A DNA stretch of 31,479 bases, taken from a virus. The notes under the pieces were generated by a model that made no database searches, was not told where the DNA came from, and was given only the letters and a program-made list of their open reading frames with translations. The DNA lies in the IMG/VR virus record IMGVR_UViG_3300022918_000231, positions 1 through 31,479 of that record; one strand, 5' to 3'. Made by a program: the position numbers and the translations under genes. Position 1 is the first letter of the stretch, and each line of letters begins with the position of its first letter. This document shows, piece by piece, positions 796 through 30,671 of this stretch.

Positions 796-1854
796 TCAGC
801 GAATTATGCATTGAGCTTTGAGGAGGGACCGGTATGTGTTATCGATTTGACGTTCTGCAATCACATCGTTCGGGTAGTCAAATGCCATTGCATATGCCTG
901 ATTCACATAAGCAGTGCAATTCGGTCTCTCCAAAGTTATGACATCGACCTCTAAAGCATATTTCACTAGTGCGTCCGTGGAGGCGTTGCCAGCGACTCGA
1001 TATTGGTAGCGCTTGACTCTTGCTTCTTCGAACCGATCTTGAATGATTTTGTTGGACGTGACCTGCTGTTCATTTTTTATTTTCTGGAGTGGTGCGGTAA
1101 GTAACGCAGTTACGTTGGTTGTGTAGCTGCGGCTGAATCGCGCCTCACTTTTTTCTTGAAGTAGCGTTAAATTCATCAAGTACAGCGGTATTGTGGTGCA
1201 GTATTCCGTGCGGCCACATGACGTGCGCGCGCTCTCGTATAATACATCTGGTTTGAAGTTTTGCGGGTTCCACCCGATTGCTAAATTATATGACTTGAGT
1301 TTCGAATAGTCGGCTTTCAGTGAGTTGTTGAAGGTTGCAAAGCATGCTACAGTTTCTTTGGTGTTAGCGTCGCCGCATTGCTTGACTCCGGAAATGTCGT
1401 CGAGAGTCTGGCCACCGTAATCAAGCTCCATCTTTGGTTCGGGTACTTTCTGTGCGGTACCGCTTGGTCGCGTTAGACTTTCATGCGTTTTGCTGAATGC
1501 CGTCCTTACCTTCCCATACTTACCCATAATACTTTGCAGCTTCGTGTTGTCTGCCTTTTGAATGGTGGCAATGGCCATGAGCTGTTCAATTGAGGCTAAA
1601 TCATCCACTGTTAGATTTTCATTGCTCAAAAGTTCGTCTAGCAGCTCGAGCGTCGCGCCCGAATCGCCTCTCTCTGACTCTCCTCTTAGCGCGCTAAGAG
1701 TCGCCCCGTAACGGCTCTGCGGCTCGTACTCTTCAAGGTGCATTTCTTCCAGGCTTGCATACTTTATAGGTTGATTAATTTGTGTACTGATTTCTTTAGC
1801 TGTACATGTCGATGCCTGAAGCAGCGCGAGCAAAAATCCTACCGTAATCTTCAT
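796..1854 (-). CDS. Hypothetical secreted protein
   Basis: The product (352 residues) begins with a typical Sec signal peptide: MKITVGFLLALLQASTC then TAKE, with cleavage likely after about residue 19. An upstream ATG at 1899 is open but adds a non-signal extension; the start at 1854 has an AGAAGGA ribosome binding site about 6 bases away and exposes the signal, so it is preferred. The mature part is mostly polar and helical, with several cysteines in the C-terminal half that could form periplasmic disulfides. No catalytic motif was recognised. It is transcribed with the early phage operon but separated by about 150 bases from the AlpA-type gene, and is poorer in GC than the phage core. A cargo (lysogenic conversion) gene is likely; function unknown. 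Confidence 0.65.
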   Translation of the reverse strand: MKITVGFLLALLQASTCTAKEISTQINQPIKYASLEEMHLEEYEPQSRYGATLSALRGESERGDSGATLELLDELLSNENLTVDDLASIEQLMAIATIQKADNTKLQSIMGKYGKVRTAFSKTHESLTRPSGTAQKVPEPKMELDYGGQTLDDISGVKQCGDANTKETVACFATFNNSLKADYSKLKSYNLAIGWNPQNFKPDVLYESARTSCGRTEYCTTIPLYLMNLTLLQEKSEARFSRSYTTNVTALLTAPLQKIKNEQQVTSNKIIQDRFEEARVKRYQYRVAGNASTDALVKYALEVDVITLERPNCTAYVNQAYAMAFDYPNDVIAERQIDNTYRSLLKAQCIIR

Positions 1855-2005
1855 GACGTTCCTTCTGAGAGAGCACTGTGTAGATCCCATGGTCCCCAAC
1901 GGTTTCGGCTTTGAATTGGTTAACTTGAGTTTCGGGTCTCAAATGGCCATGGTGCGTTCTACTCTCTCTTCAGGACAGGTTAAGTGCCCATAGAGCCGAT
2001 GGGCG

Positions 2006-2536: not shown

Positions 2537-5338
2537 TCAGGCTTTGAAGATCCAGCACTTCACCGTTCGGCAGCGCATGGTCATGGGGGATCGGACGTCT
2601 TGCGCAGCCCGCACGGCGCTGTCCACGGCCTTGTAGTCCACAAATTTCCGGCTGCGCGAATCCTTGAGCAGGTCTTTCAGCGTCGACACGTCCGCGATTT
2701 TCTGGCGGTGCTCCGCTGCTCGTTCGGCGAATTCGTTGATGTTGATGGCGATGAAGTCCGGGTTTTTGCTGTGGTTGACTAAGGGATCGGCGTAGAGGGA
2801 TTCGAGGTATTCGTAGACCTGCCAGAATTCGGCCACGGCCGCGTGGTCGGCACTGGTAGTGCTCTGACGCTCGAGGGCCATTTCGAGGATCTGCCGGCGG
2901 GTGGCTTCGACCTGGGTGTCATTGAGCGTGACCACCAGGCGAATGGCGTCCAACAGACTGAGTAGCTGGGCGTGATTCTTGATGATCCGCTCGATCCGGA
3001 TCTGGCCACGGATGTTATTGCCGCACTTGCGACAGGCGCTGTCTGCGGTGAATTCCGTACTGCAGAAGAAGCAGTTGCTGTGCAACCGGCGCAGCTTGCC
3101 TTCGTACTCCGGCATGCGGTGGCTAAGTACTTCCAACACCGCTGACTCTTTGCTGACCGCGAGCAGCAGGAAGTGGCTGAGGGTGGCCCCATCCAATGCG
3201 TTGAGCTGATCCGCTGCAGCGCGGCTTTCTGCCGTTACGGTAGGGCGGACAAAATGCAGCTTGCCGATCCGCGTCATGATCGCTTCGTGGGCCACCACTG
3301 CTGCGTTCTGAGCAATGGCGATCGCACCACGAAAGGGCGGTTCGTAAGTTTCATTGCCGGCAGTTTTCACGCCTTTGGTGGCCAGGGTGCCGCCGCCGTA
3401 AAAGTCTTTCAGCTCGTCCCATTCAAACGCCTTGGAGTGCGTCTTGTTGTTCTCATCCCCATTGCGGTCGGCCTCCAGGAACACAACCGGCATCCCCGAC
3501 ACCTGCCCCATCAGGCGTGAGCGGCCAGCTTTGGTCGACTTCATCGGGTCGAAGCCTTCATAACCTTCGCGGCCCATCAGCTTCCACAACAGATTGAGCA
3601 AAGTGGTTTTGCCCGCGCCGGCTTCGCCGGTCAGTTCGAGGAACAGGTAGGACTGATACCGCGCGCGGATCTGTTCGCAGAACAGGGAGCCGAAAAAGAA
3701 CACCAGGGCGACCAGACCTTGGGAGCCAAAGCAGATCAGCATGAGCCGCAGCCACTCTTCGTCGTAGTCCTTGCGCTCACGTTGCAGCACGATCGGAACG
3801 CCTTTCTGCAGCGTCTTGAGGCGCATCCGGCCAAGCTCGAAATAGTCCTCGCTGTTGATCGGATAGACCACCCCGTCCTTGATGGCCACGTCGCCGTACA
3901 GATAAGCGCCGTGCTCTTTGCTGTAGCCGATGAAATCAATGGTCGACACTGTTTTGAGTCCGTAAAGTTGGTCTTTCATGATTTTGTCCAGCTGCTGACC
4001 GCTGCCGGTGTACATGGCACCAGCGGCCATCCCGAGCAGACGCTTTTTGAATTCGCTGGCTGCAGTGAGCTGTCCACTGGTGAAGGTGTTCTTCACGCTG
4101 TCGCCGTCGTGGGGGAAGTCAACGCGCACGTAGTACCAGGACTCGTCGGTTACTTCGTTTCGCTGGTAATAGAGGGCTTGCGGATAGCAGTTGGCTATTT
4201 CGATCACGCTGCCGGACTGCTGCAGGGCCTTTTCCCGCATGGCGGACTGGTTCAGCAGTTGCTCTTCCTGGTCTTCACTGTCCTCTAGGTCCTGCATGGC
4301 ACGGTTGAATTTCTCCATGTCCAACTTGAACCAGTACAACCGGCTGGCAAAGCCCAGGTGAAATTCACCGCGCTTGTTCCAGTCGTACATGAGCAATGCC
4401 TTCTCTGCGGCGTTTTCAGCGATCAGTAACGCGCCCTGATGACGCGCCTGTTTGATATCGCTCGCTACCTGGTCAAGACGCTTGGCTTCTTCATCCATGA
4501 ACGCCCAGCGCTGGTGCAGGTCGTTCCAGTCGACCTTGCGGCCATCGCGTTGAGGAATTTGCGCCGCCTCACATATGAAGCCCAACTCCCTGGCCATGCG
4601 GACCCAGCGGCGGGTGTAACCGTTTGCACCTGGTTCGTTGTCTAGCGCCCATACAAGTTTGGGCAACTTCGCTTCACGATCAGCACAGTCACGCAGCAAG
4701 GCTTTCAACGACTCTTCCGGAAAGGCGTTGGAAGACATGGCGGACACCGCCGAAATGCCATTATGCAGAAGGGCTATGGCATCAAAGATGCCCTCTACGA
4801 TCCATATTTCTTTGACCTCGAGCAGGTCAACCGAGGGAGGGCACCACCACACGCCCCGGTAGGTTTCGCCTGGCTTGAACCGGGCTTTCATCTTGCCAAA
4901 CCGCGACGGTCGATCGATCAGCCGTTCCCAGTAGCCACCCTTCGTGAGAGGGAAGCGGACAGTCGCGCTGCCGGCATCCAGATCCCGGTTGAAATACGTT
5001 TCCTGGGTAAACCAGCCCCCGATCAGATCCATGCTGAAACCACGCGCAAACTCTAAGTAGGCGCGGGCACTTGCTGCAGGGGCGTTCTCGGTTGCCGGTG
5101 CTCGCTTACTCCAGTCCTCGAACAGATCCTCGTAGATTTCCTTCACGTGCATGGTGTGAGCGCACTTTTCAGGCCGGCCGCAGATCACCAACCAAGGGGC
5201 GGTGTGGCGGGTGAACAGGGTTTTCTGCCGGCACTTGGGACAAGTACCACCGCGCATGTAGTCGGTGCCTGGGCGGTGTTTCAGGCCAAAGTCGTGCTCG
5301 AGGCGCTGCAGGACGTCGTGACGTAGGTCGTCTCTCAT
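2537..5338 (-). CDS. Phage primase-helicase (zinc finger, TOPRIM, P-loop ATPase)
   Basis: A 933-residue replication protein. The N-terminus has a primase-type zinc site (C33, C36, C53, C59). A TOPRIM-like region follows at about 175-240, with the EG-x-FDA motif near residue 181 and an acidic ALDNEPG motif. A helicase-like ATPase domain carries a Walker A motif, GEAGAGKTT, at about 563-572 and a Walker B-like VVFLEAD soon after. A second four-cysteine cluster (CFFC ... CRKC, about 750-770) lies beyond the ATPase core. Such proteins prime and unwind DNA at the phage origin. The size and architecture fit the large primases of P2-like and satellite phages. Its ATG overlaps the preceding gene's stop by ATGA, showing translational coupling in the leftward early operon. 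Confidence 0.9.
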   Translation of the reverse strand: MRDDLRHDVLQRLEHDFGLKHRPGTDYMRGGTCPKCRQKTLFTRHTAPWLVICGRPEKCAHTMHVKEIYEDLFEDWSKRAPATENAPAASARAYLEFARGFSMDLIGGWFTQETYFNRDLDAGSATVRFPLTKGGYWERLIDRPSRFGKMKARFKPGETYRGVWWCPPSVDLLEVKEIWIVEGIFDAIALLHNGISAVSAMSSNAFPEESLKALLRDCADREAKLPKLVWALDNEPGANGYTRRWVRMARELGFICEAAQIPQRDGRKVDWNDLHQRWAFMDEEAKRLDQVASDIKQARHQGALLIAENAAEKALLMYDWNKRGEFHLGFASRLYWFKLDMEKFNRAMQDLEDSEDQEEQLLNQSAMREKALQQSGSVIEIANCYPQALYYQRNEVTDESWYYVRVDFPHDGDSVKNTFTSGQLTAASEFKKRLLGMAAGAMYTGSGQQLDKIMKDQLYGLKTVSTIDFIGYSKEHGAYLYGDVAIKDGVVYPINSEDYFELGRMRLKTLQKGVPIVLQRERKDYDEEWLRLMLICFGSQGLVALVFFFGSLFCEQIRARYQSYLFLELTGEAGAGKTTLLNLLWKLMGREGYEGFDPMKSTKAGRSRLMGQVSGMPVVFLEADRNGDENNKTHSKAFEWDELKDFYGGGTLATKGVKTAGNETYEPPFRGAIAIAQNAAVVAHEAIMTRIGKLHFVRPTVTAESRAAADQLNALDGATLSHFLLLAVSKESAVLEVLSHRMPEYEGKLRRLHSNCFFCSTEFTADSACRKCGNNIRGQIRIERIIKNHAQLLSLLDAIRLVVTLNDTQVEATRRQILEMALERQSTTSADHAAVAEFWQVYEYLESLYADPLVNHSKNPDFIAININEFAERAAEHRQKIADVSTLKDLLKDSRSRKFVDYKAVDSAVRAAQDVRSPMTMRCRTVKCWIFKA

Positions 5339-5574
5339 GATTGCTTCACTGCGTTGAGGCTGTGGGACAGGGCTGCCATCAGGCGTTTTTGCGCGGCCAT
5401 TACCGGGACATGGGCGAGAATTGCGCCGTGGCGCAGACCGTCCGCAACGAAGCGAAATTGGTCGGCATACCAGTATTCGTTGAGGCTCAAGCGGTACTGT
5501 TCACGCACGGCTGCCAGCAACGCTTCGGCCTCTGCCGGAGGCAGTTGGGTGGTGATGATTACGGCGTTTCCCAT
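5335..5574 (-). CDS. Hypothetical early phage protein
   Basis: The preferred start at 5574 (MGNAVIITTQLP) has a GAGG ribosome binding site 7 bases upstream; a longer frame from 5604 is open but less well supported. The 79-residue product has a helical segment (PAEAEALLAAVREQY) and no recognised domain. It overlaps the primase start by four bases (ATGA), so the two are probably co-translated. An accessory role in replication is possible by position only. Confidence 0.7.
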   Translation of the reverse strand: MGNAVIITTQLPPAEAEALLAAVREQYRLSLNEYWYADQFRFVADGLRHGAILAHVPVMAAQKRLMAALSHSLNAVKQS

Positions 5575-5647
5575 CGTGAAACCTCGAATTCGGGCGCAGC
5601 TCACCCAAACCCACGGGGTGTGGGGCAGGCAATGTGTTGGGTTGGTG

Positions 5648-6013
5648 TTACGAGTTGGCTAAGCGGTAACGCCCGTTGTCCGGTGCGTTGATGATGCGTT
5701 CGTAGATCAGGCTGACCGGGATTGCCCAGGCATTGCCGGTGGTTGGGTCGACGATGACCGAATGGGTCGCCGAACTGTTGAGGTTGTCTAGCCGCTGCCG
5801 ATCGCGGATTGCATGCATGTCGCTGTACGCCAGGTGCACCATCTTTTCGGCCAGCTGGGTCAGCACGTCGTAATCGGCCACCAGGTGGCGAACGGTTCGG
5901 CGGATCAGCTGCTGGTCATTGCTCAGGTGCTCACAGTGGTGACGCTCCAGGAACGTAAGAGCAGCGGCTTTCAACACGTCCTGATACTCCTGTACTGCAG
6001 GCGGGTTATTCAT
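5648..6013 (-). CDS. Hypothetical early phage protein
   Basis: The frame is open much further upstream, but that part lies inside the previous gene in another frame. The start at 6013 (MNNPPAVQEYQDV) has AAGGG about 8 bases upstream and overlaps the preceding stop by 8 bases, which is normal operon packing. The 121-residue product is mainly helical with a conserved-looking end (VDPTTGNAWAIPVSLIYERI). No domain or motif was recognised. A 73-base gap separates it from the next gene downstream. Confidence 0.75.
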   Translation of the reverse strand: MNNPPAVQEYQDVLKAAALTFLERHHCEHLSNDQQLIRRTVRHLVADYDVLTQLAEKMVHLAYSDMHAIRDRQRLDNLNSSATHSVIVDPTTGNAWAIPVSLIYERIINAPDNGRYRLANS

Positions 6014-6518
6014 TGGGCTGGCCCTTTTTGACGCGGTAAAGGTCGATGGCTGCCAGCACTTCGGCGTGACGTGCCGCCATGTGCAGGTTGTGAGCATTGA
6101 GGATGTGTTCTGCCTCGGCTTCGCTGATGCAGCCATCGGCCAGTGCCTTTGCAATTTCTTGATCGACGCAGCCACGCTTTGCAGCGACCTGAACGGAAAG
6201 GGTGTACATCTCCACGGTGTCATTCGTTTCGGGATCTGGTACCGCAACGAACAGGCCGCCATACATCGACGCCACGTAGTTGGGGAAATGCTGCGTGCCT
6301 GCTTCCTGCTCGAGCTGGTACAGCTGGGAGTCGTTCAGCGGGCGGCTGTTGTTATTTTCGTAGGCGTGGTTATCGAATTTTTTCAATGCCAAACCGATAC
6401 GTGCGGCAGCGCATTCGCGACCGCCTGGATAGCTGCAGATAATTGCGCTGACAACTTCGCGGCGAGTCTTTAGAACTGGGCTTTTCATGTTCTGCTTTTC
6501 CCTGATAGTCCGTGCCAT
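6006..6518 (-). CDS. YmfL/CII-like phage regulatory protein
   Basis: A 170-residue protein. The N-terminal third (REVVSAIICSYPGG ... ARIGLALKKFDNHAYEN) resembles the YmfL/Phage_CP76 group of putative CII-type regulators, where a helix-turn-helix-like start is followed by a helical tail. The C-terminal half is helical and acidic. The start shares one base with the stop of the Cro-like gene; an internal ATG at 6488 is an alternative. As the second gene of the early operon, next to the switch, it fits a role in the lysis-lysogeny decision or in early gene activation. The family assignment rests on recalled similarity and context, not on a search. Confidence 0.7.
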   Translation of the reverse strand: MARTIREKQNMKSPVLKTRREVVSAIICSYPGGRECAAARIGLALKKFDNHAYENNNSRPLNDSQLYQLEQEAGTQHFPNYVASMYGGLFVAVPDPETNDTVEMYTLSVQVAAKRGCVDQEIAKALADGCISEAEAEHILNAHNLHMAARHAEVLAAIDLYRVKKGQPNE

Positions 6519-6718
6519 TACTGTGTAATCACGCCGTCTTTAATCCCCAGCAACACGGCGGCTCGATGTGCCTCCCCTCGGCGGCCTTTTTTACGTCCGT
6601 TCAAAAGGTCGCTGACAAGATTCTTGTTCAAATCATGCTGGCGGCTGAATTCCGCAATGCTGATCCCTCTTCGGTCTAGGGCCTCGCGGGCTTGCTCGGT
6701 TGTAAGCGGGGCGGGCAT
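6518..6718 (-). CDS. Cro-like DNA-binding protein (BcepMu gp16 type)
   Basis: A 66-residue basic protein matching the pattern of the BcepMu gp16 family: T-x-E-Q-A-R-E-A-L-D-R-R-G-I-S-I-A-E-F, then a helix-turn-helix with NLVSDLLNGRKKGRRGEAHRAA and an L-G-I-K-D-G end. These are small helix-turn-helix proteins encoded beside phage repressors. It is the first gene of the leftward operon and is divergent from the repressor gene, with 87 bases between start codons, which is the usual Cro position. It probably represses the lysogenic promoter and moderates its own operon. Confidence 0.85.
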   Translation of the reverse strand: MPAPLTTEQAREALDRRGISIAEFSRQHDLNKNLVSDLLNGRKKGRRGEAHRAAVLLGIKDGVITQ

Positions 6719-21252: not shown

Positions 21253-22424
21253 GCGACGTCGACTTTAAACAGGCGCTCGCTGATTCAGGCGTTCCCACGA
21301 CCGAAGCCGCGCTGCGTGCCGCGTGGGAAGCCGAAGTGGTCGCCCAGGGCAGCAAGCTGGCCAATACCAGCGCGTATTCGCCGTTCTGGCGCGTGGTCAC
21401 CGCCCTGGTCACCAAACCGGTGCTCTGGATCCTGACCTTTGTCAGTGACACCGTGCTGCCAAACTTCTTCGTCAAAACCGCGACCGGGGCCTGGCTGGAC
21501 ATGCTGGCCTGGGCGGTCAACGTTGAACGCAAAGCCCCGACCAAGGCGATCGGCTCGCTGTTGTTCAGCCGTGCTACCACGGTGGGCCGCTTCGAAGTGC
21601 CGGCGGGCACCCGCGTGCAGTCGGCCGCGATCAACGGCCACGTCTACGAACTGGTGACCACGGTCGCCGCCAGCTTTGTAGAAGGCTCCTCACAACTACA
21701 AATTCCGGCTATGGCGATCGAGGCCGGCAGCGGCTTTAACCTGGCCCCGGGTTATTACGCGGTTCTGCCGGTGCCGGTACCGGGCGTGGTTCAGGTGGTC
21801 AATCTTGACAGCTGGCTGGCCAGCCCGGGATCGGACTCGGAGCTGGACGATGACCTGCGCCTGCGTGTGCGTAACCAGTTCAGCGCGGTCAACCAATGGC
21901 ACACCGACGCGGTCTATCGCGCCCTGATCGCCGCGTTCCCGGGCGTGTCGGCCAACGGCGTGTATTTCCAGCACGGCGCACCACGCGGGCCAGGCAGCGC
22001 CAATGCCTACGTGCTGTTCGAAGCGGACGTGCCGGCGGACACCTACCTGCAGCAGATAAACGCCCGGATCATGGACGAGGGCAACCATGGCCACGGCGAT
22101 TCAATGCTGGTGATGGTCATGCCAGAAACCCAGCACGACGTCAGCCTGCAGGTGTGGCCGGTGGTCAACTTGACCGACGCGCAGCGCGCCACCCTGAAAG
22201 CCGACATCGCCCTGTTTATCCGCGCGGCGTTCCGCGAGAGCACCGGCAGCGACTACACCCCGACGCTGACCTGGCCGCAGTCGCGCTTTTCGTTCAGCCG
22301 CCTGGTGGAAGAGCTGCACGAACAATTCCCGCGCATCGAATCCATGAAATTCGCGAACGAAGACATCCTTTCGGATCTGGCGGTTCCCCGGCTGCAGGCG
22401 CTGCAGGTGACCTTCGATGATTAA
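21249..22424 (+). CDS. J: Baseplate wedge protein J (gpJ-like)
   Basis: A 391-residue baseplate J protein with a GTG start. The family features are visible: VPAGTRVQSAAINGHVYELV at about 118-137, AIEAGSGFNLAPG at about 157-169, then SPGSDSELDDDLRLRVRNQF at about 192-211 and the downstream YRALIAAFPGVSANGVYF. The C-terminus (FSRLVEELHEQFPRIESM) contacts the other wedge protein. It overlaps the next gene by 8 bases. These wedge proteins surround the hub and carry the fibres. Confidence 0.92.
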   Translation: MSDVDFKQALADSGVPTTEAALRAAWEAEVVAQGSKLANTSAYSPFWRVVTALVTKPVLWILTFVSDTVLPNFFVKTATGAWLDMLAWAVNVERKAPTKAIGSLLFSRATTVGRFEVPAGTRVQSAAINGHVYELVTTVAASFVEGSSQLQIPAMAIEAGSGFNLAPGYYAVLPVPVPGVVQVVNLDSWLASPGSDSELDDDLRLRVRNQFSAVNQWHTDAVYRALIAAFPGVSANGVYFQHGAPRGPGSANAYVLFEADVPADTYLQQINARIMDEGNHGHGDSMLVMVMPETQHDVSLQVWPVVNLTDAQRATLKADIALFIRAAFRESTGSDYTPTLTWPQSRFSFSRLVEELHEQFPRIESMKFANEDILSDLAVPRLQALQVTFDD

Positions 22425-23094
22425 GCTCGAGTTGCCGTTCTGGCTGGACGGCGAAGAGGCCACCAAGCTCAAGGCGACAGCACAGGCCTGGTGGGAATCG
22501 GTGGAAGGCTGGCTGCGCTGGCCCCTGCTGCAGATGGACGCCGAGACGTGCCACCTGACCATTCTGGATCTGCTCGCCTGGCAGCGCGACATCACCCGCT
22601 TTCGCGGCGAGTCCGAAGCCCTTTACCGGCTGCGCGTGAAATACGCCTTTATCAATGCGGTGGACGCCGGATCCGTTATCGGCTTCCAGCGGATCCTGCA
22701 GCGCCTGGGCGTGGGGTATGTGCGGATTGCCGAACGCCTGGCCGATCGGGATTGGGACATCGTCCAGTTGCACCTGAGTGATTCCCAGCTTTCAGAAAAC
22801 CCGGCCCTGCTGGACATGATCGTCCACCAGTACGGGCGCACCTGCCGCCGGTACGAATTCGTCAGCACCTCTGTGGTGCGCCTGGTGATGGCTGCCTACG
22901 AAATCAGCAATGACCAGATGACCCTGATCGCCAAGTTCGATGACACGCAAACCGTGGGCATGCGCTTAGCCACCGGCGAGTTCGGTCATGACCAGCTGTC
23001 GATCGTCGCCCGCTTCAACGACACCCAAACGGTTGGCCTTGCGCTGGCCACCTCCGAGTTCAACAACGACCAGGTCACTCTGGTTACACGCTAA
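22417..23094 (+). CDS. I: Tail protein I (gpI-like) with C-terminal repeats
   Basis: A 225-residue wedge protein. Residues 1-150 match gpI: a short start, LLAWQRDITRFRGESEALYRLRVKYA-type segment at about 52-77, and GFQRILQRLGVG. P2 gpI is about 176 residues; the extra length here is a tandem repeat of 26 residues. Three units are seen at 154-179, 180-205 and 206-225 (last one partial), with consensus V-x-L-x-x-A-x-x-E-F-x-N-D-Q-x-T-L-x-A-x-F-D-D-T-Q-T. gpI links the wedge to the tail fibre, so the repeats may form a fibre-docking stalk. Confidence 0.85.
   Translation: MIKLELPFWLDGEEATKLKATAQAWWESVEGWLRWPLLQMDAETCHLTILDLLAWQRDITRFRGESEALYRLRVKYAFINAVDAGSVIGFQRILQRLGVGYVRIAERLADRDWDIVQLHLSDSQLSENPALLDMIVHQYGRTCRRYEFVSTSVVRLVMAAYEISNDQMTLIAKFDDTQTVGMRLATGEFGHDQLSIVARFNDTQTVGLALATSEFNNDQVTLVTR
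22876..23091 (+). repeat. 78-bp coding tandem repeat in gpI gene
   Basis: Units start at 22876, 22954 and 23032; the last is shortened to 60 bases by the stop codon. The first two encoded units share the blocks D-D-T-Q-T/N-D-T-Q-T and the N/H-D-Q triplet at the same spacing. The DNA is more diverged than the protein, pointing to an old duplication under selection. Confidence 0.7.
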
Positions 23095-23106: not shown

Positions 23107-25383
23107 ATGGGGGCTAGCATTACCCTTGCAGGCGAAAGCCTGATCTCGCAGAAACAAGCCGCACGCCAGACCGTTGAGGTGTCCACGTTCATCCTCGCCA
23201 AAGTGCCAGGGCTGGACACGACCTTGCCGGTGGATCGCAGCGCCGGCGTACCTGACGCCAATCTGATCGTTCACACCACACCCGTCACCCGCGAAGGCTA
23301 CCTGGCCACCAATAAGGTGGTGTACAGCTTGATGTTGGGCACTGATATCGGTGACTTTGATTTTAACTGGATGGGCCTGGTCACCGCTGAAGGCGTGTTG
23401 CTGATTGCAGCCTATGTGCCCCTGCAGCAGAAACGCCGAGAGATTCCGCCGCTGCAGGCCGGCAACAATCTGACCCGCAACATCGTCTGGGAATATGACG
23501 GCGCGCAGTCACTGTCGGGGATCACTGTGCCGGCCAGCACCTGGCAGTTCGACTTTACCGCCGACTTCACTGCGATCAATACCCAGCTGGCTGAGTTGAA
23601 AACCGAGCTGGGCAAGAAGGTGGATCTGGAAACCTGGACGCCACCGCAAGCGGTCAGCCTTGACGGCCCGGTGTTGGTTTACCCAGGCAGCACCAACACG
23701 TACAAGATCACCGATTACAACCGCTTTAGCGTATTCACGGCATCAACCACACTGGGTACAGTCTCGGTCGCTGCAGACGTCCTGACGTTGGTGATTCCGA
23801 CCGTAGCCGCAGCCGGCCTGCTGACGCTTGAAGTTTTGCGCGACGGCAACAAGGCCTCGTTCAAGCTCCCGGTAGGGGCTGCATCCATTGTTCCGCCGAC
23901 CATCACCAGTCCTGCGAACCTGGCCACCGGAGTGGCCCTCGACCTGGTGCTGACCGCGACGGCGTTCGAGGTATTTCCTACAGCATTCGATCACCAGGTG
24001 TCGCGCCGCTGGCAGATCGCAACCGATGAGGCTTTTACCCAGATCGTCTTCGACAAGACCAGCACCACGGCGCTGACCAGCATTCGCCCCACCGAGTACG
24101 ACTTTCTGCTGCCTCCGGGTAAGCGCCTGTATGCGCGAACCTACGACATTGGCGCAACGCTGCAGTCAGAGAAATCCGCGACAGTGGTGTTCAACACGGC
24201 GACGACCTACATCCGCCGTCCAGCCATCACGTTCCCAATCGACGGTGCCCAGAACGTCAGCACTGGCGTGACGTTGTTGAGCGACGCGTTCAGTGTCTAT
24301 GGCGGCAATGACACCCAGGTGGGCAGCCGCTTCCAGATCTGCACGGCTGCTGATGGCACCGGCGTGGTGTTCGATAGCGGCTGGGTCACCAGCGGCTTCA
24401 CCAGCTACAAGCCGGCCAGCAATCTGGCAACCATCACTCAGTTCTATGGCCGGGTGAAATACAAGGGCCAGGCTCTGGGGGAGACCGAATGGTCGCCGTT
24501 GGTGGGCTTCAAGACTGCCAACAAGTTGCAGGGGGTCTACAAGGCCCTGAATGGCGGCGCGACCGCGCGAAGCAACCACGCCATGGCGGCATTGGATGGC
24601 AAGATTTATGTCGTTGGCGGCTCGGACTCCAGCGGCACCCTAAGCGATCTGTGGCGGTATGACCCCGCGACCAACGCCTGGCTACAACTGCCCAACATGC
24701 CGGTACCGCGTCTGTATCACACCATGGTCGCTATGGCCGGCAAGCTGTATGTGTTTGGCGGTAGTCCCACCGGTTCGCAGTTCGTCAACGATATCTACAC
24801 CTATGACCCAGTCCAGAACAAATGGGCCCAAGTGGTCGTGACATCGGCGAATCCACCCAGCGTGCGTTATGGCCACATCGCGAAGGTCATCAACGGCAAG
24901 ATGTATATCTATGGCGGCCACACAGGTATGGGCTACCTGAATGATCTGTGGGTATTTGATCCGACTGCACGCACCTGGACGGCGCTGCAGGGGGACTCAC
25001 CTGCGCGTTACTCCAGTACCGCCGGCGTCATCGCGGGGGAGTTGTATGTAGCGATCGGTGCTCAAGAAAGCACCGGATCGGCCTCACGCCTCTCGAAGTA
25101 CAACGTAACCACCAACACCTGGACGCCGCTCAAAAGCATGCCTTACAGCGCCCGCTTGTGGGCTACCGGCGAGGCTGCCTCGGAAAAACTTTACGTCTTC
25201 GGCGGGAGCAGTAACGCGGGCGAGTTATTGGAGTTTGACCCGCAGACGGGCGAATGGACGCAGTTGCCGGCCAACCCATCCGGAACACGTGCCTGGGCAA
25301 CCACTTGCGAGTTGAACGGCAAGCTCTATGTCTTCGGCGGCACCAACGGCGCTGCTTTGAATTCGCTGTTCTCCATTGAATAA
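23107..25383 (+). CDS. H: Tail fibre protein with Fn3-like and kelch-propeller domains
   Basis: A 758-residue fibre (P2 gpH position). Residues 1-165 match the phage tail-collar fibre N-terminal domain (KVPGLDTTLPVDRSAGVPDA; NWMGLVTAEGVLLIAAYVPLQQKRR), which attaches to the baseplate. Residues 262-370 and 371-475 are two related beta-sandwich repeats, each opening P-x-I-T-x-P and ending in a W-S/F-x-T-A strand. Residues about 490-758 hold six kelch motifs, with G-K-x-Y-V-x-G-G at about 498, 545, 597, 644, 692 and 738, and W-x-x-L in five blades. The last blade lacks its closing strand, which residues before blade 1 could supply. The propeller is probably the receptor-binding tip. Confidence 0.88.
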   Translation: MGASITLAGESLISQKQAARQTVEVSTFILAKVPGLDTTLPVDRSAGVPDANLIVHTTPVTREGYLATNKVVYSLMLGTDIGDFDFNWMGLVTAEGVLLIAAYVPLQQKRREIPPLQAGNNLTRNIVWEYDGAQSLSGITVPASTWQFDFTADFTAINTQLAELKTELGKKVDLETWTPPQAVSLDGPVLVYPGSTNTYKITDYNRFSVFTASTTLGTVSVAADVLTLVIPTVAAAGLLTLEVLRDGNKASFKLPVGAASIVPPTITSPANLATGVALDLVLTATAFEVFPTAFDHQVSRRWQIATDEAFTQIVFDKTSTTALTSIRPTEYDFLLPPGKRLYARTYDIGATLQSEKSATVVFNTATTYIRRPAITFPIDGAQNVSTGVTLLSDAFSVYGGNDTQVGSRFQICTAADGTGVVFDSGWVTSGFTSYKPASNLATITQFYGRVKYKGQALGETEWSPLVGFKTANKLQGVYKALNGGATARSNHAMAALDGKIYVVGGSDSSGTLSDLWRYDPATNAWLQLPNMPVPRLYHTMVAMAGKLYVFGGSPTGSQFVNDIYTYDPVQNKWAQVVVTSANPPSVRYGHIAKVINGKMYIYGGHTGMGYLNDLWVFDPTARTWTALQGDSPARYSSTAGVIAGELYVAIGAQESTGSASRLSKYNVTTNTWTPLKSMPYSARLWATGEAASEKLYVFGGSSNAGELLEFDPQTGEWTQLPANPSGTRAWATTCELNGKLYVFGGTNGAALNSLFSIE

Positions 25384-25394
25384 GGACACCCTCA

Positions 25395-25913
25395 ATGTAC
25401 CAACTTGAATCCTATGCAGATGGTGGCGCGCTGGTGGTGAACACCGTGGAGCTTTACCGCGCCACATTCAACGCGGCCAGCGCCGAGGAAGCGGAACAGA
25501 TCGTTGTTCGCTTGAACAAGCCGGTGATGCTGGCTGCTTTGGCGACCCATCGCTTTGACTTCGAAGTGGCCGGCCTCGACGTCACGGGCGGTCTGCGCGT
25601 GTTATCCGATCGCCAAAGCCAGTCGCAGCTGACCAACTCATTCACCAACCTCAAACACGGTTTGATTCCTGACACCGATTGGAAGGCGGCGAACGGCTGG
25701 CAAGTCGGAGACCTGGACGAGATTGAACCTATCGCCAAGGCAATGGCAGCGCATGTGAGAGCGTGTTTTCGTGGCGAACGTGTCACCGAAACGGCTATCA
25801 ATACCGCCACGAGCATGGCGGATATCGAAGCGGTCAACATTGCCGAGCTATTCGGCGCTGCCTACCAGGTGGCATTTGATGAGGTTATGACCGCCGAGCA
25901 GGCGACTGAATGA
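25395..25913 (+). CDS. Probable tail fibre assembly protein
   Basis: A 172-residue acidic protein directly behind the fibre gene (11-base gap with an AAGGACA ribosome binding site). A beta-rich first part (VMLAALATHRFDFEVAGLDVTGGLRV) is followed by a helical region of the DUF4376-like kind with VRACFRGERVTETAINTATSMADIEAV. Proteins of this type in this position usually act as fibre chaperones, the role of P2 gpG. It shares only weak resemblance with classic gpG, so the function rests mainly on position. Confidence 0.65.
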   Translation: MYQLESYADGGALVVNTVELYRATFNAASAEEAEQIVVRLNKPVMLAALATHRFDFEVAGLDVTGGLRVLSDRQSQSQLTNSFTNLKHGLIPDTDWKAANGWQVGDLDEIEPIAKAMAAHVRACFRGERVTETAINTATSMADIEAVNIAELFGAAYQVAFDEVMTAEQATE

Positions 25914-29105: not shown

Positions 29106-30671
29106 GTGGGCGCTACAGGGAAACTTTCAGAGGTTAACATTGGTCAGCTTATTACGCTGAAAACCAAGATGTCGAGGGAGAGTTACTATTTTCGAGAGCC
29201 GCTTGAAATGCTAGTAAGGCATTTCTTGAAAAATTTCTCCTCAAGAAACACTCTGGCTCTATCAGATCAGGAACTTATTGATGAGTATGTAGAGTTGGCA
29301 GGGGGGAGGCAGAATACTTTTTTAGATTCTGAATTCGTATCCTACATTGCTACGGAGTATATGTTTCTTGTTGCCCCGCCAAAGGAAAAGCTGTTTGAGC
29401 TATATCTGCAGGCCAGTGACGATCTAAAAGATATCGAAGATCATCTAGCCTTCATCTCAGGAGAAGAGGCTAAAGTCGTTGGTGGAAGCCAGTCCGAAGA
29501 TATGACGGCAGGCGAAATGAATTACTATTCAAAGCAGCTGGCTTTCTACAAGGCTCGAAACATAACTGCTCGTTCGGAAATACTAAATTTTCTAACTAAC
29601 AAAATCAAATTGTTTGCGTTAAGGCTAGCGACTCCTGAGCCATCCTGGCAAATATCGTCTCTCAAGCCAACACCGTATCCTTATGCGCGAAAACGTACAT
29701 TTTATAAAACATATCCGAATATATACGATGTCAGAAGCTTGACGCCTCTTCTCAATAAGTTCGGCGATCAGCATATTTCGACTATTACGAGTTTGGAAAA
29801 ATGCTACAGAGACGATAAAGATGCTTTTTATGTACAGGCCAGAAAATATATCGATACTGGTTTCCGCAGCGAAGCCGGAGTGGTCGAAAAAATCCGCGAA
29901 TTTGTATCGCAGAATCATATCCTCTGGTCGCGGCGAGATATTATTGAAACAATAATCGGACACTATACGTCGGGAGACTATATTTCATTTGTCAACATGG
30001 TGCCCCTTCAGATTGAGGGTATTTTCCATGACATTTGCGTCGAGTGTGATATTGATCCTGCCACGCTTAACGGCGCTTCGTTGAATACGAAGCTGGATTT
30101 GCTCCAGTCTCCGCTAAAATATATGCCCTATTATGAATATTATTCTTTCAAGTTCCCTGTAATCAGGAATCAAGTCGCACACGGCGGTATAGTTGCTGAC
30201 AATCTAGAGCATGCCGCAATGATGCTTCTTCTAGACTTTCTGCCTGTATGTAGTATGACAGTAATTGAAAATATACCTATCAATAAATCCCTTCACTTAA
30301 TAAAGAAGTTCAATGCTGATCCTGGTGCCTACGAGGCGTTGATTGAGTGGCTTCCTTACTATGGAAGGGTGTTGCCAGACTTTTATGACATGGCGGCATG
30401 TCGCGAGAATCTCGTGCATGCCTACTCCTTCCCGGAATTTTGGGAGTATATTGAAAGTAGTGTGGAGTCCGAAGGTTCTTTTGATGGATCTGTGTACCTG
30501 GCTTTTATAGTCAGGCTTAAAAAAGCAAAGCTGGCGCTAGACTGCATTATAAAATTTGATAGAAAGAAACGGGCAATACTGAAGAGGATTGAAGAGCGTA
30601 AAGCAGAAGAGCTACATTGGTATGAATCTCTAGAAATAAGTGCTCATATCAATCCTACGCCTAAACAATAG
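29106..30671 (+). CDS. HEPN-motif cargo protein (putative defence or toxin)
   Basis: A 521-residue cytoplasmic protein with a GTG start 5 bases after a perfect GGAGG. Near residue 350 it has PVIRNQVAHGGIV, in which R354-N-Q-V-A-H359 is the RX4H motif of HEPN ribonuclease domains, including the common N after R and the H-G following. Helices before the motif (about 295-345) fit the four-helix HEPN bundle. The first 290 residues and the last 120 have no recognised domain; the former includes several aromatic, charged helices. The gene is clearly AT-rich against about 60% GC around it, and sits past the last virion gene, a typical cargo slot. An RNA-cutting anti-phage role is plausible, not shown. 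Confidence 0.65.
   Translation: MGATGKLSEVNIGQLITLKTKMSRESYYFREPLEMLVRHFLKNFSSRNTLALSDQELIDEYVELAGGRQNTFLDSEFVSYIATEYMFLVAPPKEKLFELYLQASDDLKDIEDHLAFISGEEAKVVGGSQSEDMTAGEMNYYSKQLAFYKARNITARSEILNFLTNKIKLFALRLATPEPSWQISSLKPTPYPYARKRTFYKTYPNIYDVRSLTPLLNKFGDQHISTITSLEKCYRDDKDAFYVQARKYIDTGFRSEAGVVEKIREFVSQNHILWSRRDIIETIIGHYTSGDYISFVNMVPLQIEGIFHDICVECDIDPATLNGASLNTKLDLLQSPLKYMPYYEYYSFKFPVIRNQVAHGGIVADNLEHAAMMLLLDFLPVCSMTVIENIPINKSLHLIKKFNADPGAYEALIEWLPYYGRVLPDFYDMAACRENLVHAYSFPEFWEYIESSVESEGSFDGSVYLAFIVRLKKAKLALDCIIKFDRKKRAILKRIEERKAEELHWYESLEISAHINPTPKQ

What the first reader, a model, noticed from the sequence alone, without database searches (positions are those of the whole stretch)
23107..25383. 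Tail fibre ending in a six-motif kelch propeller
Most tail fibres of P2-like phages end in trimeric beta-helix or knob tips. This one joins a standard phage attachment domain to two Fn3-like repeats and six kelch motifs spaced 46-52 residues apart. The last blade is incomplete, implying closure by a strand from before blade 1. A propeller tip would be a distinct receptor-binding solution, perhaps for a glycan, and suggests domain capture.
Basis: partly seen in the sequence, partly recalled or inferred. Interest (0 to 1): 0.5.

Follow-up and report, generated by a model that had tools for sequence, protein, structure and literature searches.

The report
Phage tail fibre tipped by propeller
A Pseudomonas phage carries a tail fibre that is predicted to end in a six-bladed propeller, and related phages carry quite different binding heads on the same arm, so it looks like an exchangeable host-recognition tool.

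Summary
Confirmed and extended. ORF 23107-25383 (758 aa) joins a P2-type tail-fibre attachment domain (PF12571) to a short helix, three Ig-like domains and a C-terminal kelch domain. AlphaFold2 (seven-sequence alignment) gives a closed six-bladed propeller at 475-758; the three-stranded last blade is completed by strand 478-481, Z 38 to the LZTR1 kelch domain. No trimeric tip domain was found. It is not a one-off: of 31 non-redundant Ig-shaft fibres, 16 carry kelch heads, 2 WD40/YVTN-type propellers, 10 Lcl_C lectin-like heads. In one near-isogenic pair, kelch and Lcl heads are exchanged as a cassette with the downstream gene. Kelch heads behind attachment domains at least 95% identical are only 24-81% identical, and all loop-length variation lies on one face, by topology the one away from the shaft. 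One relative's head is a retroelement target. Best reading: a modular receptor-binding head. Receptor, glycan binding and trimer geometry are untested. Kelch virion proteins and propeller receptor-binding proteins are known; this shaft gave only one weak hit in 50,697 isolate-phage records.

The parts
23107..25383 (+). tail-fibre gene, 758 aa
   Evidence: ORF; Pfam; sits between tail protein I (22417-23094, Tail_P2_I) and a DUF4376 gene (25395-25913)
23113..23568 (+). attachment domain PF12571, residues 3-154
   Evidence: E 3.2e-25
23557..23622 (+). probable coiled coil, residues 151-172; positions 154,157,161,164,168,172 (3-4 spacing) hydrophobic in 16 of 16 kelch fibres; inferred trimerisation point
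   Evidence: helix 151-169 (partly pLDDT under 50); columns
23653..23880 (+). Ig-like domain 0, residues about 183-258
   Evidence: strands; shaft alignment A5
23893..24207 (+). Ig/Fn3-like domain A, residues about 263-367
24211..24522 (+). Ig/Fn3-like domain B, residues about 369-472
   Evidence: sub-threshold Ig_Rha78A_N in relatives L001, L010, L011
24532..25380 (+). six-bladed kelch propeller head, residues 476-758
24538..24549 (+). closing strand 478-481 (outer strand of blade 6)
24580..24690 (+). blade 1 (492-528)
24721..24834 (+). blade 2 (539-576)
24877..24987 (+). blade 3 (591-627)
25018..25131 (+). blade 4 (638-675)
25165..25263 (+). blade 5 (687-719)
25300..25377 (+). blade 6, three strands (732-757)
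25395..25913 (+). downstream DUF4376 gene, probable fibre-assembly partner; in relatives the start of this protein follows the head class
   Evidence: PF14301 E 1e-14; tail fiber PHROGs

Best explanation
The gene encodes the host-recognition fibre of a P2-like Pseudomonas phage, probably temperate (its full-length relatives lie in Pseudomonas genomes; no integrase was identified in the window). PF12571 joins the fibre to the baseplate (known family role); a short coiled coil (151-172) probably trimerises it (inferred). Each chain then continues as an arm of three Ig-like domains ending in a self-closed six-bladed kelch propeller (fold predicted here). Topology puts the chain entry and the short AB/CD loops on the shaft side, so the long, length-variable BC/DA loops face outwards and most likely bind a surface receptor (inferred). 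Arm ends are exchanged as cassettes together with part or all of the downstream gene, so these phages change their binding head, within kelch or to a WD40/YVTN propeller or an Lcl lectin-like head, without touching the attachment domain (exchange shown by comparison; its effect on host range inferred).
For: Domain content and gene order. Closed six-blade model, head pLDDT mostly 85-95, Z 38.0. Same shaft with other heads: WD40/YVTN-type in L002/L104, Z 33.4, Lcl_C. N-domain tree: 22 Ig-shaft fibres (16 kelch, 4 Lcl, 2 WD) form one group (100/100) apart from 27 chosen fibres without this shaft; the four labels need 6 changes, of which well-supported branches force at least 2 for kelch and 2 for Lcl. 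L102 and L087 DNA is 95% identical up to fibre codon about 380 and 96% again from the end of the downstream gene, with Lcl versus kelch between. Of 18 kelch pairs (of 120) with N-domain identity of 95% or more, kelch identity is 24-81%, 12 of them 33% or less. Window versus L010: 98% in the N-domain, 42% in kelch. Loop lengths over 16 non-redundant kelch heads: AB always 2, CD always 4, BC 0-17, DA 8-14. Residues invariant in 16 of 16 heads are only G, Y and W. L113, same shaft with an Lcl head, has RT (PF00078), a bAvd-like ORF (38.7 bits, cut-off 40) and a template repeat; 13 of 13 VR/TR differences lie at template A.
Against: No binding, host-range or virion data. Trimerisation and separate arms are not modelled; only monomer prediction was available, pTM is 0.52 and parts of the N-domain and helix are under pLDDT 50 (62-70, 116-123, 131-152, 167-177). 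BC-loop length variation may be common to kelch domains in general: no control family was run. The entropy contrast between the faces is modest (2.08 against 1.77 bits; 247 of 10,000 permutations as large). A few polar residues are nearly invariant in the heads (R488, Q527, D711, N752 in 15 of 16, D567 in 14). The WD-type model rests on three sequences (two near-identical) and is good only in the head (mean pLDDT 52). No reverse transcriptase in the window record.
Confidence: 0.8

Rival explanations
1. The propeller is an enzyme, e.g. a sialic-acid mutarotase or galactose-oxidase-like protein, that modifies or cuts surface sugars rather than a pure binder.
For: The Pfam NANM model matches (E 2e-24, 86.4 bits, above its Pfam cut-off of 45); NCBIfam N-acetylneuraminate epimerase and mutarotase models hit. 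A few polar residues are nearly invariant (R488, Q527, D711, N752 in 15 of 16).
Against: NCBIfam subfamily cut-offs are missed by far (86.6 of 416, 78.9 of 243.2, 72.6 of 256.35 bits). Only G, Y and W are invariant in 16 of 16 heads. Heads are replaced by other folds on the same shaft.
Confidence: 0.08
2. The head binds another virion protein or is decorative, not the receptor.
For: Kelch domains are protein-binding modules elsewhere, and a jumbo-phage kelch protein (CBB_552) is part of the virion with no role given in the passages seen (PMC5259590).
Against: The head is the most variable part and is swapped as a cassette while the baseplate side stays 95% or more identical; a head on the same shaft is retroelement-mutated.
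Confidence: 0.08
3. Three propellers pack into one compact trimeric platform, as in phage phi11, so the tip is trimeric after all.
For: The phi11 receptor-binding protein has three propellers around a threefold axis (PMC4901313, passages); the coiled coil would set up a trimer.
Against: In phi11 the propellers follow the helical stem directly; here three Ig-like domains lie between helix and propeller, and heads of other folds sit on the same shaft. None of this excludes packing.
Confidence: 0.2

Closest known systems
PF12571 tail-collar fibre proteins of P2-like phages (e.g. Pseudomonas phage phi3)
   Same: Attachment domain 60.8% identical to the phi3 fibre over residues 3-160; same place between tail protein I and a fibre-assembly-like gene
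   Different: Among 49 PF12571 fibres scanned, Collar, Gp53-like_C and Phage_fiber_2 tips or repeats are the common matches (20, 10, 7) and kelch is in 3; here Ig shaft plus propeller
Staphylococcus phage phi11 RBP gp45
   Same: Trimeric receptor-binding protein with a propeller in each chain, with a cavity that could hold GlcNAc (PMC4901313, passages)
   Different: Five-bladed, directly on a helical stem and followed by a tower domain; no Ig arm
phiKZ gp131C and PRD1 P2 propellers
   Same: Propellers proposed as phage receptor-binding domains (PMC4901313 and PMC6115969, passages)
   Different: gp131C is seven-bladed; P2 is called a distorted five-bladed propeller in one paper and grouped with six-bladed ones in the other; relation to PF12571 not tested
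eCIS eBAP3 fibres with beta-propeller lectins
   Same: Contractile-tail fibres whose binding parts include propellers among many domain types (PMC12923769, passages)
   Different: Collagen-like shafts and a TNFR-like end; toxin-delivery particles, not phages; no mention of kelch in that text (0 occurrences)
Kelch proteins of jumbo phages (EL, PhiPA3, Noxifer, CBB)
   Same: Kelch propeller in phage proteins annotated or found as virion proteins (CBB_552 in the virion, PMC5259590, passages)
   Different: Large unrelated phages; none of the 150 records covers 80% of this fibre in one place
Paenibacillus phage phiERICV ORF ERICV_05142
   Same: Kelch domain (34.6% identity) in the gene right after tail protein I, the fibre position
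   Different: Gram-positive phage, 598 aa; the best tblastn match covers the head only
Tentaclins
   Same: Phage proteins joining Ig domains with a variable C-type lectin, retroelement targets (PMC10743442, abstract)
   Different: Lectin is N-terminal with Ig domains after it; gut phages

Membership tests
PF12571 tail-collar fibre | match over curated cut-off at N-terminus | tested here: met
   89.3 bits against 23
P2-like tail fibre gene | position after tail protein I and before an assembly-type gene | tested here: met
   same order in phi3
P2-like tail fibre gene | conventional tip or repeats (Collar, Gp53-like_C, Phage_fiber_2) | tested here: not met
   no such Pfam family in the window protein at E 0.001; found in many relatives
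kelch six-bladed propeller | kelch repeat models over curated cut-offs | tested here: met
   six motifs
kelch six-bladed propeller | closed six-blade fold | tested here: met
   predicted model only; Z 38.0 over 475-758
NanM / mutarotase enzymes | NCBIfam subfamily cut-off | tested here: not met
   86.6 of 416 bits; 78.9 of 243.2; 72.6 of 256.35; the general Pfam NANM model is passed
propeller receptor-binding proteins (phi11 type) | propeller binds surface receptor | not testable with these tools
   needs a binding assay
propeller receptor-binding proteins (phi11 type) | homotrimer | not testable with these tools
   only monomer prediction; hydrophobic 3-4 spacing suggests a coiled coil
diversity-generating retroelement target | RT and template repeat in the same record | tested here: not met
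   no RT in the window record, which may be a fragment; no second copy of the kelch DNA in the window; met in relative L113

The most novel reading that the evidence does not exclude
A branched, antibody-like tail fibre: a trimeric stub from which three independent Ig arms spread, each carrying a self-folding, exchangeable head (six-bladed kelch, seven-bladed WD40/YVTN or Lcl lectin), with the kelch BC/DA loops acting as the variable binding surface. It would be a natural plug-and-play adhesion platform in which head folds swap freely because no trimeric fold has to be preserved.
Probability: 0.4. Interest if true: 0.72.

Novelty: new variant of a known kind. Interest (0 to 1): 0.55.

Why it matters
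It points to a P2-type fibre class whose tip is a single-chain domain on an Ig arm, exchanged between at least three head types in nature. If the heads alone set host range, they would be compact scaffolds for studying phage adsorption without trimeric tips, and the kelch loop face would be a natural case of a propeller used as a variable recognition surface. It also offers a testable role, recognition, for the kelch virion proteins of jumbo phages.

Tried and rejected
A retroelement source of kelch diversity in the window: no RT in 15 records, including the window and five other kelch records, and no repeat of the head elsewhere in the window. Conserved enzyme: see rivals. RNA elements: no Rfam match in the window. 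Tandem repeats by TRF: none. In the isolate-phage collection (50,697 records) the shaft gave one weak hit, Salicola SCTP-2, and no record matched at least 80% of the whole fibre in one place (0 of 150). Papers: kelch with tail fibre, receptor-binding protein, prophage, tailocin or baseplate was searched; in the papers opened for kelch, the passages were a jumbo-phage note (CBB; Erwinia SNUABM_12) or an author name. Other listed papers were not opened. Those searches, and the searches, showed me no report of a P2-type kelch fibre, in a library that lacks most subscription journals. A BFVD Foldseek search listed kelch proteins of jumbo phages and of poxviruses. SU10 and CASP13 propeller passages concern other proteins.

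Full report
What is there. The window is a 31,479-base IMG/VR virus record. Its structural genes are P2-like: terminase, portal, tape measure, baseplate J and tail protein I, then the fibre gene 23107-25383, a DUF4376 gene, a gene of unknown function (phrog_1677), an HP1_ORF34-type gene and two baseplate genes. The nearest full-length fibres in the genome collection are in Pseudomonas: P. iridis 65%, P. triticifolii 49%, Pseudomonas sp. UBA1879 48% identity in the best segment.

Fold. Pfam places PF12571 at 3-154 and kelch families from 487 on. A model from seven aligned fibres (A2) has mean pLDDT 80, mostly 85-95 in the head, and pTM 0.52. Blades are 492-528, 539-576, 591-627, 638-675, 687-719 and 732-757; strand 478-481 supplies the fourth strand of blade 6. 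The head aligns over 475-758 with the LZTR1 kelch domain: Z 38.0, 1.8 A, 282 residues. The shaft has three Ig-like domains and follows a helix 151-169; positions 154, 157, 161, 164, 168 and 172 are hydrophobic in 16 of 16 kelch fibres, as in a coiled coil. Parts of the N-domain and helix are modelled with low confidence.

A family with several heads. A scan with the shaft alignment gave 35 IMG/VR loci. With the window, L010, L011, L012, L077 and L078 added (41 in all) and 10 near-copies (95% identity or more) merged, 31 remain: 16 kelch, 2 WD40/YVTN, 10 Lcl_C-type, 1 glycine-rich by eye (L109, no Pfam head match), 2 fragments (L110, L118). WD type: the head of L002 (same contig as L104) is modelled as a propeller, Z 33.4 to a designed seven-blade protein and 31.3 to a YVTN propeller; its model is good only in the head. 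L106 (same contig as L003) was not folded; its last 200 residues align with L104 at 39% over 130 and WD40/propeller models hit below their cut-offs. Lcl_C: all 10 match at E 0.001 or better; 7 pass the curated cut-off of 34.9 bits, L115 (34.2), L103 (28.2) and L117 (22.7) do not. Of 398 Pseudomonas genomes, 216 have a PF12571 match; 7 matched shaft or head, and 4 of these have the shaft-plus-kelch fibre, three being the seeds and one, G150, new with two prophages. One search scored at most three candidates a genome, so this is a lower bound, but the class is rare. In the isolate-phage collection the shaft gave one weak hit.

Exchange. In a tree of the attachment domain (49 rows: 22 Ig-shaft fibres and 27 chosen fibres that match the query only in about the first 160 residues, labelled conventional), the 22 stand together with support 100/100; the four labels need 6 changes, of which starred branches force at least 2 for kelch and 2 for Lcl. 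Eight fibres with near-identical attachment domains carry kelch (6) or Lcl (2) heads. L102 and L087 are 95.4% identical in DNA to base 4636 (fibre codon about 380) and 96.0% again from 6131/6315; between lie an Lcl head and its downstream gene in one, a kelch head and its downstream gene in the other. Window versus L010: 85% DNA identity to base 24070, a 151-base island, then loss until 25659 inside the DUF4376 gene. Kelch identity is 24-81% in the 18 of 120 pairs with attachment-domain identity of 95% or more. The start of the downstream protein follows head class: 16 of 16 kelch and 2 of 2 WD fibres show class-typical starts; of 10 Lcl fibres, 6 have one of two other starts, 1 (L113) is followed first by a bAvd-like ORF, and 3 had no ORF found; none was found for L109 (classes read by eye). 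Pfam finds DUF4376 in the window and L104 partners but not in those of L101 or L103.

Why the head is probably the receptor binder. (i) It is the most variable part: mean entropy 0.53 bits in the N-domain, 1.86 in kelch. (ii) In a four-stranded blade the outer strand D starts on the AB/CD face; the chain enters the head through strand D of blade 6, so the shaft joins that face, by topology. All length variation over 16 heads is on the other face: AB always 2, CD always 4, BC 0-17, DA 8-14. The entropy contrast is weaker (247 of 10,000 permutations as large), and I ran no control kelch family. (iii) Heads of other kinds sit on the same shaft, and one, L113, is a retroelement target: RT over its cut-off, a bAvd-like ORF just under it (38.7 of 40 bits), and a template repeat with 13 of 13 differences at template A. 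A more distant fibre (L079, G127; 34% identity over part of the shaft) also has an RT and a repeat, 9 of 12 differences at A and 3 at T. (iv) Only G, Y and W are invariant in 16 of 16 heads; a few polar positions (R488, Q527, D567, D711, N752) are conserved in 14 or 15, so a shared site is unlikely but not excluded.

What is not shown. Receptor identity, sugar binding, oligomeric state, arm separation and virion incorporation are untested.

Known versus new. Kelch proteins in phage virions (CBB; PMC5259590, passages), propellers in receptor-binding proteins (phi11, with phiKZ gp131C and PRD1 P2 as cited there; PMC4901313, passages; PMC6115969, passages) and propeller lectins in fibres of contractile injection systems (PMC12923769, passages) are known. 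A Paenibacillus phage has a kelch protein at the fibre position. New here, as far as my searches reach, is the P2-type fibre class with an Ig arm and heads of at least three kinds that are exchanged. I rate it a new variant of a known kind.

Noticed in passing
L113:3148-7223: Retroelement around an Lcl-headed Ig-shaft fibre: variable repeat 4664-4795, bAvd-like ORF 4862-5245 (38.7 of 40 bits), template 5373-5504, RT ORF 5242-6618; all 13 VR/TR differences at template A.
   Followed up: yes
L079:3650-8631 (unnamed Pseudomonas genome G127): Fibre with similar Fn3-type repeats and a different C-terminal head, a 112-base repeat 89% alike downstream and an RT ORF: a second retroelement-linked fibre; 9 of 12 repeat differences at template A, 3 at T.
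   Followed up: partly
window 22417-23094: Tail protein I has a C-terminal extension of imperfect repeats of about 26 aa (seen by eye). Related proteins are shorter (204 aa in L001, listed from an upstream TTG; 199 in L003 and L077) against 225 in the window and L002, consistent with one unit fewer.
   Followed up: partly
window 29106-30671: 521-aa ORF in an AT-rich stretch (GC about 0.42) after the baseplate genes; no match in Pfam, PHROGs, NCBIfam, PADLOC or the isolate-phage collection: unknown cargo.
   Followed up: partly
window 796-1899 (-): 367-aa ORF in a lower-GC stretch without match in Pfam, NCBIfam or PADLOC.
   Followed up: no
   Followed up: partly
L006:3378-8135: Long fibre-like protein with many Fn3-type repeats and a C-terminal part that reads by eye like a BNR/YCF48-type repeat region (family recalled, no Pfam match for it): another possible head class.
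   Followed up: no
L125:3824-4843: Kelch ORF of about 340 aa in another phage, without the Ig shaft; found by the kelch alignment.
   Followed up: no
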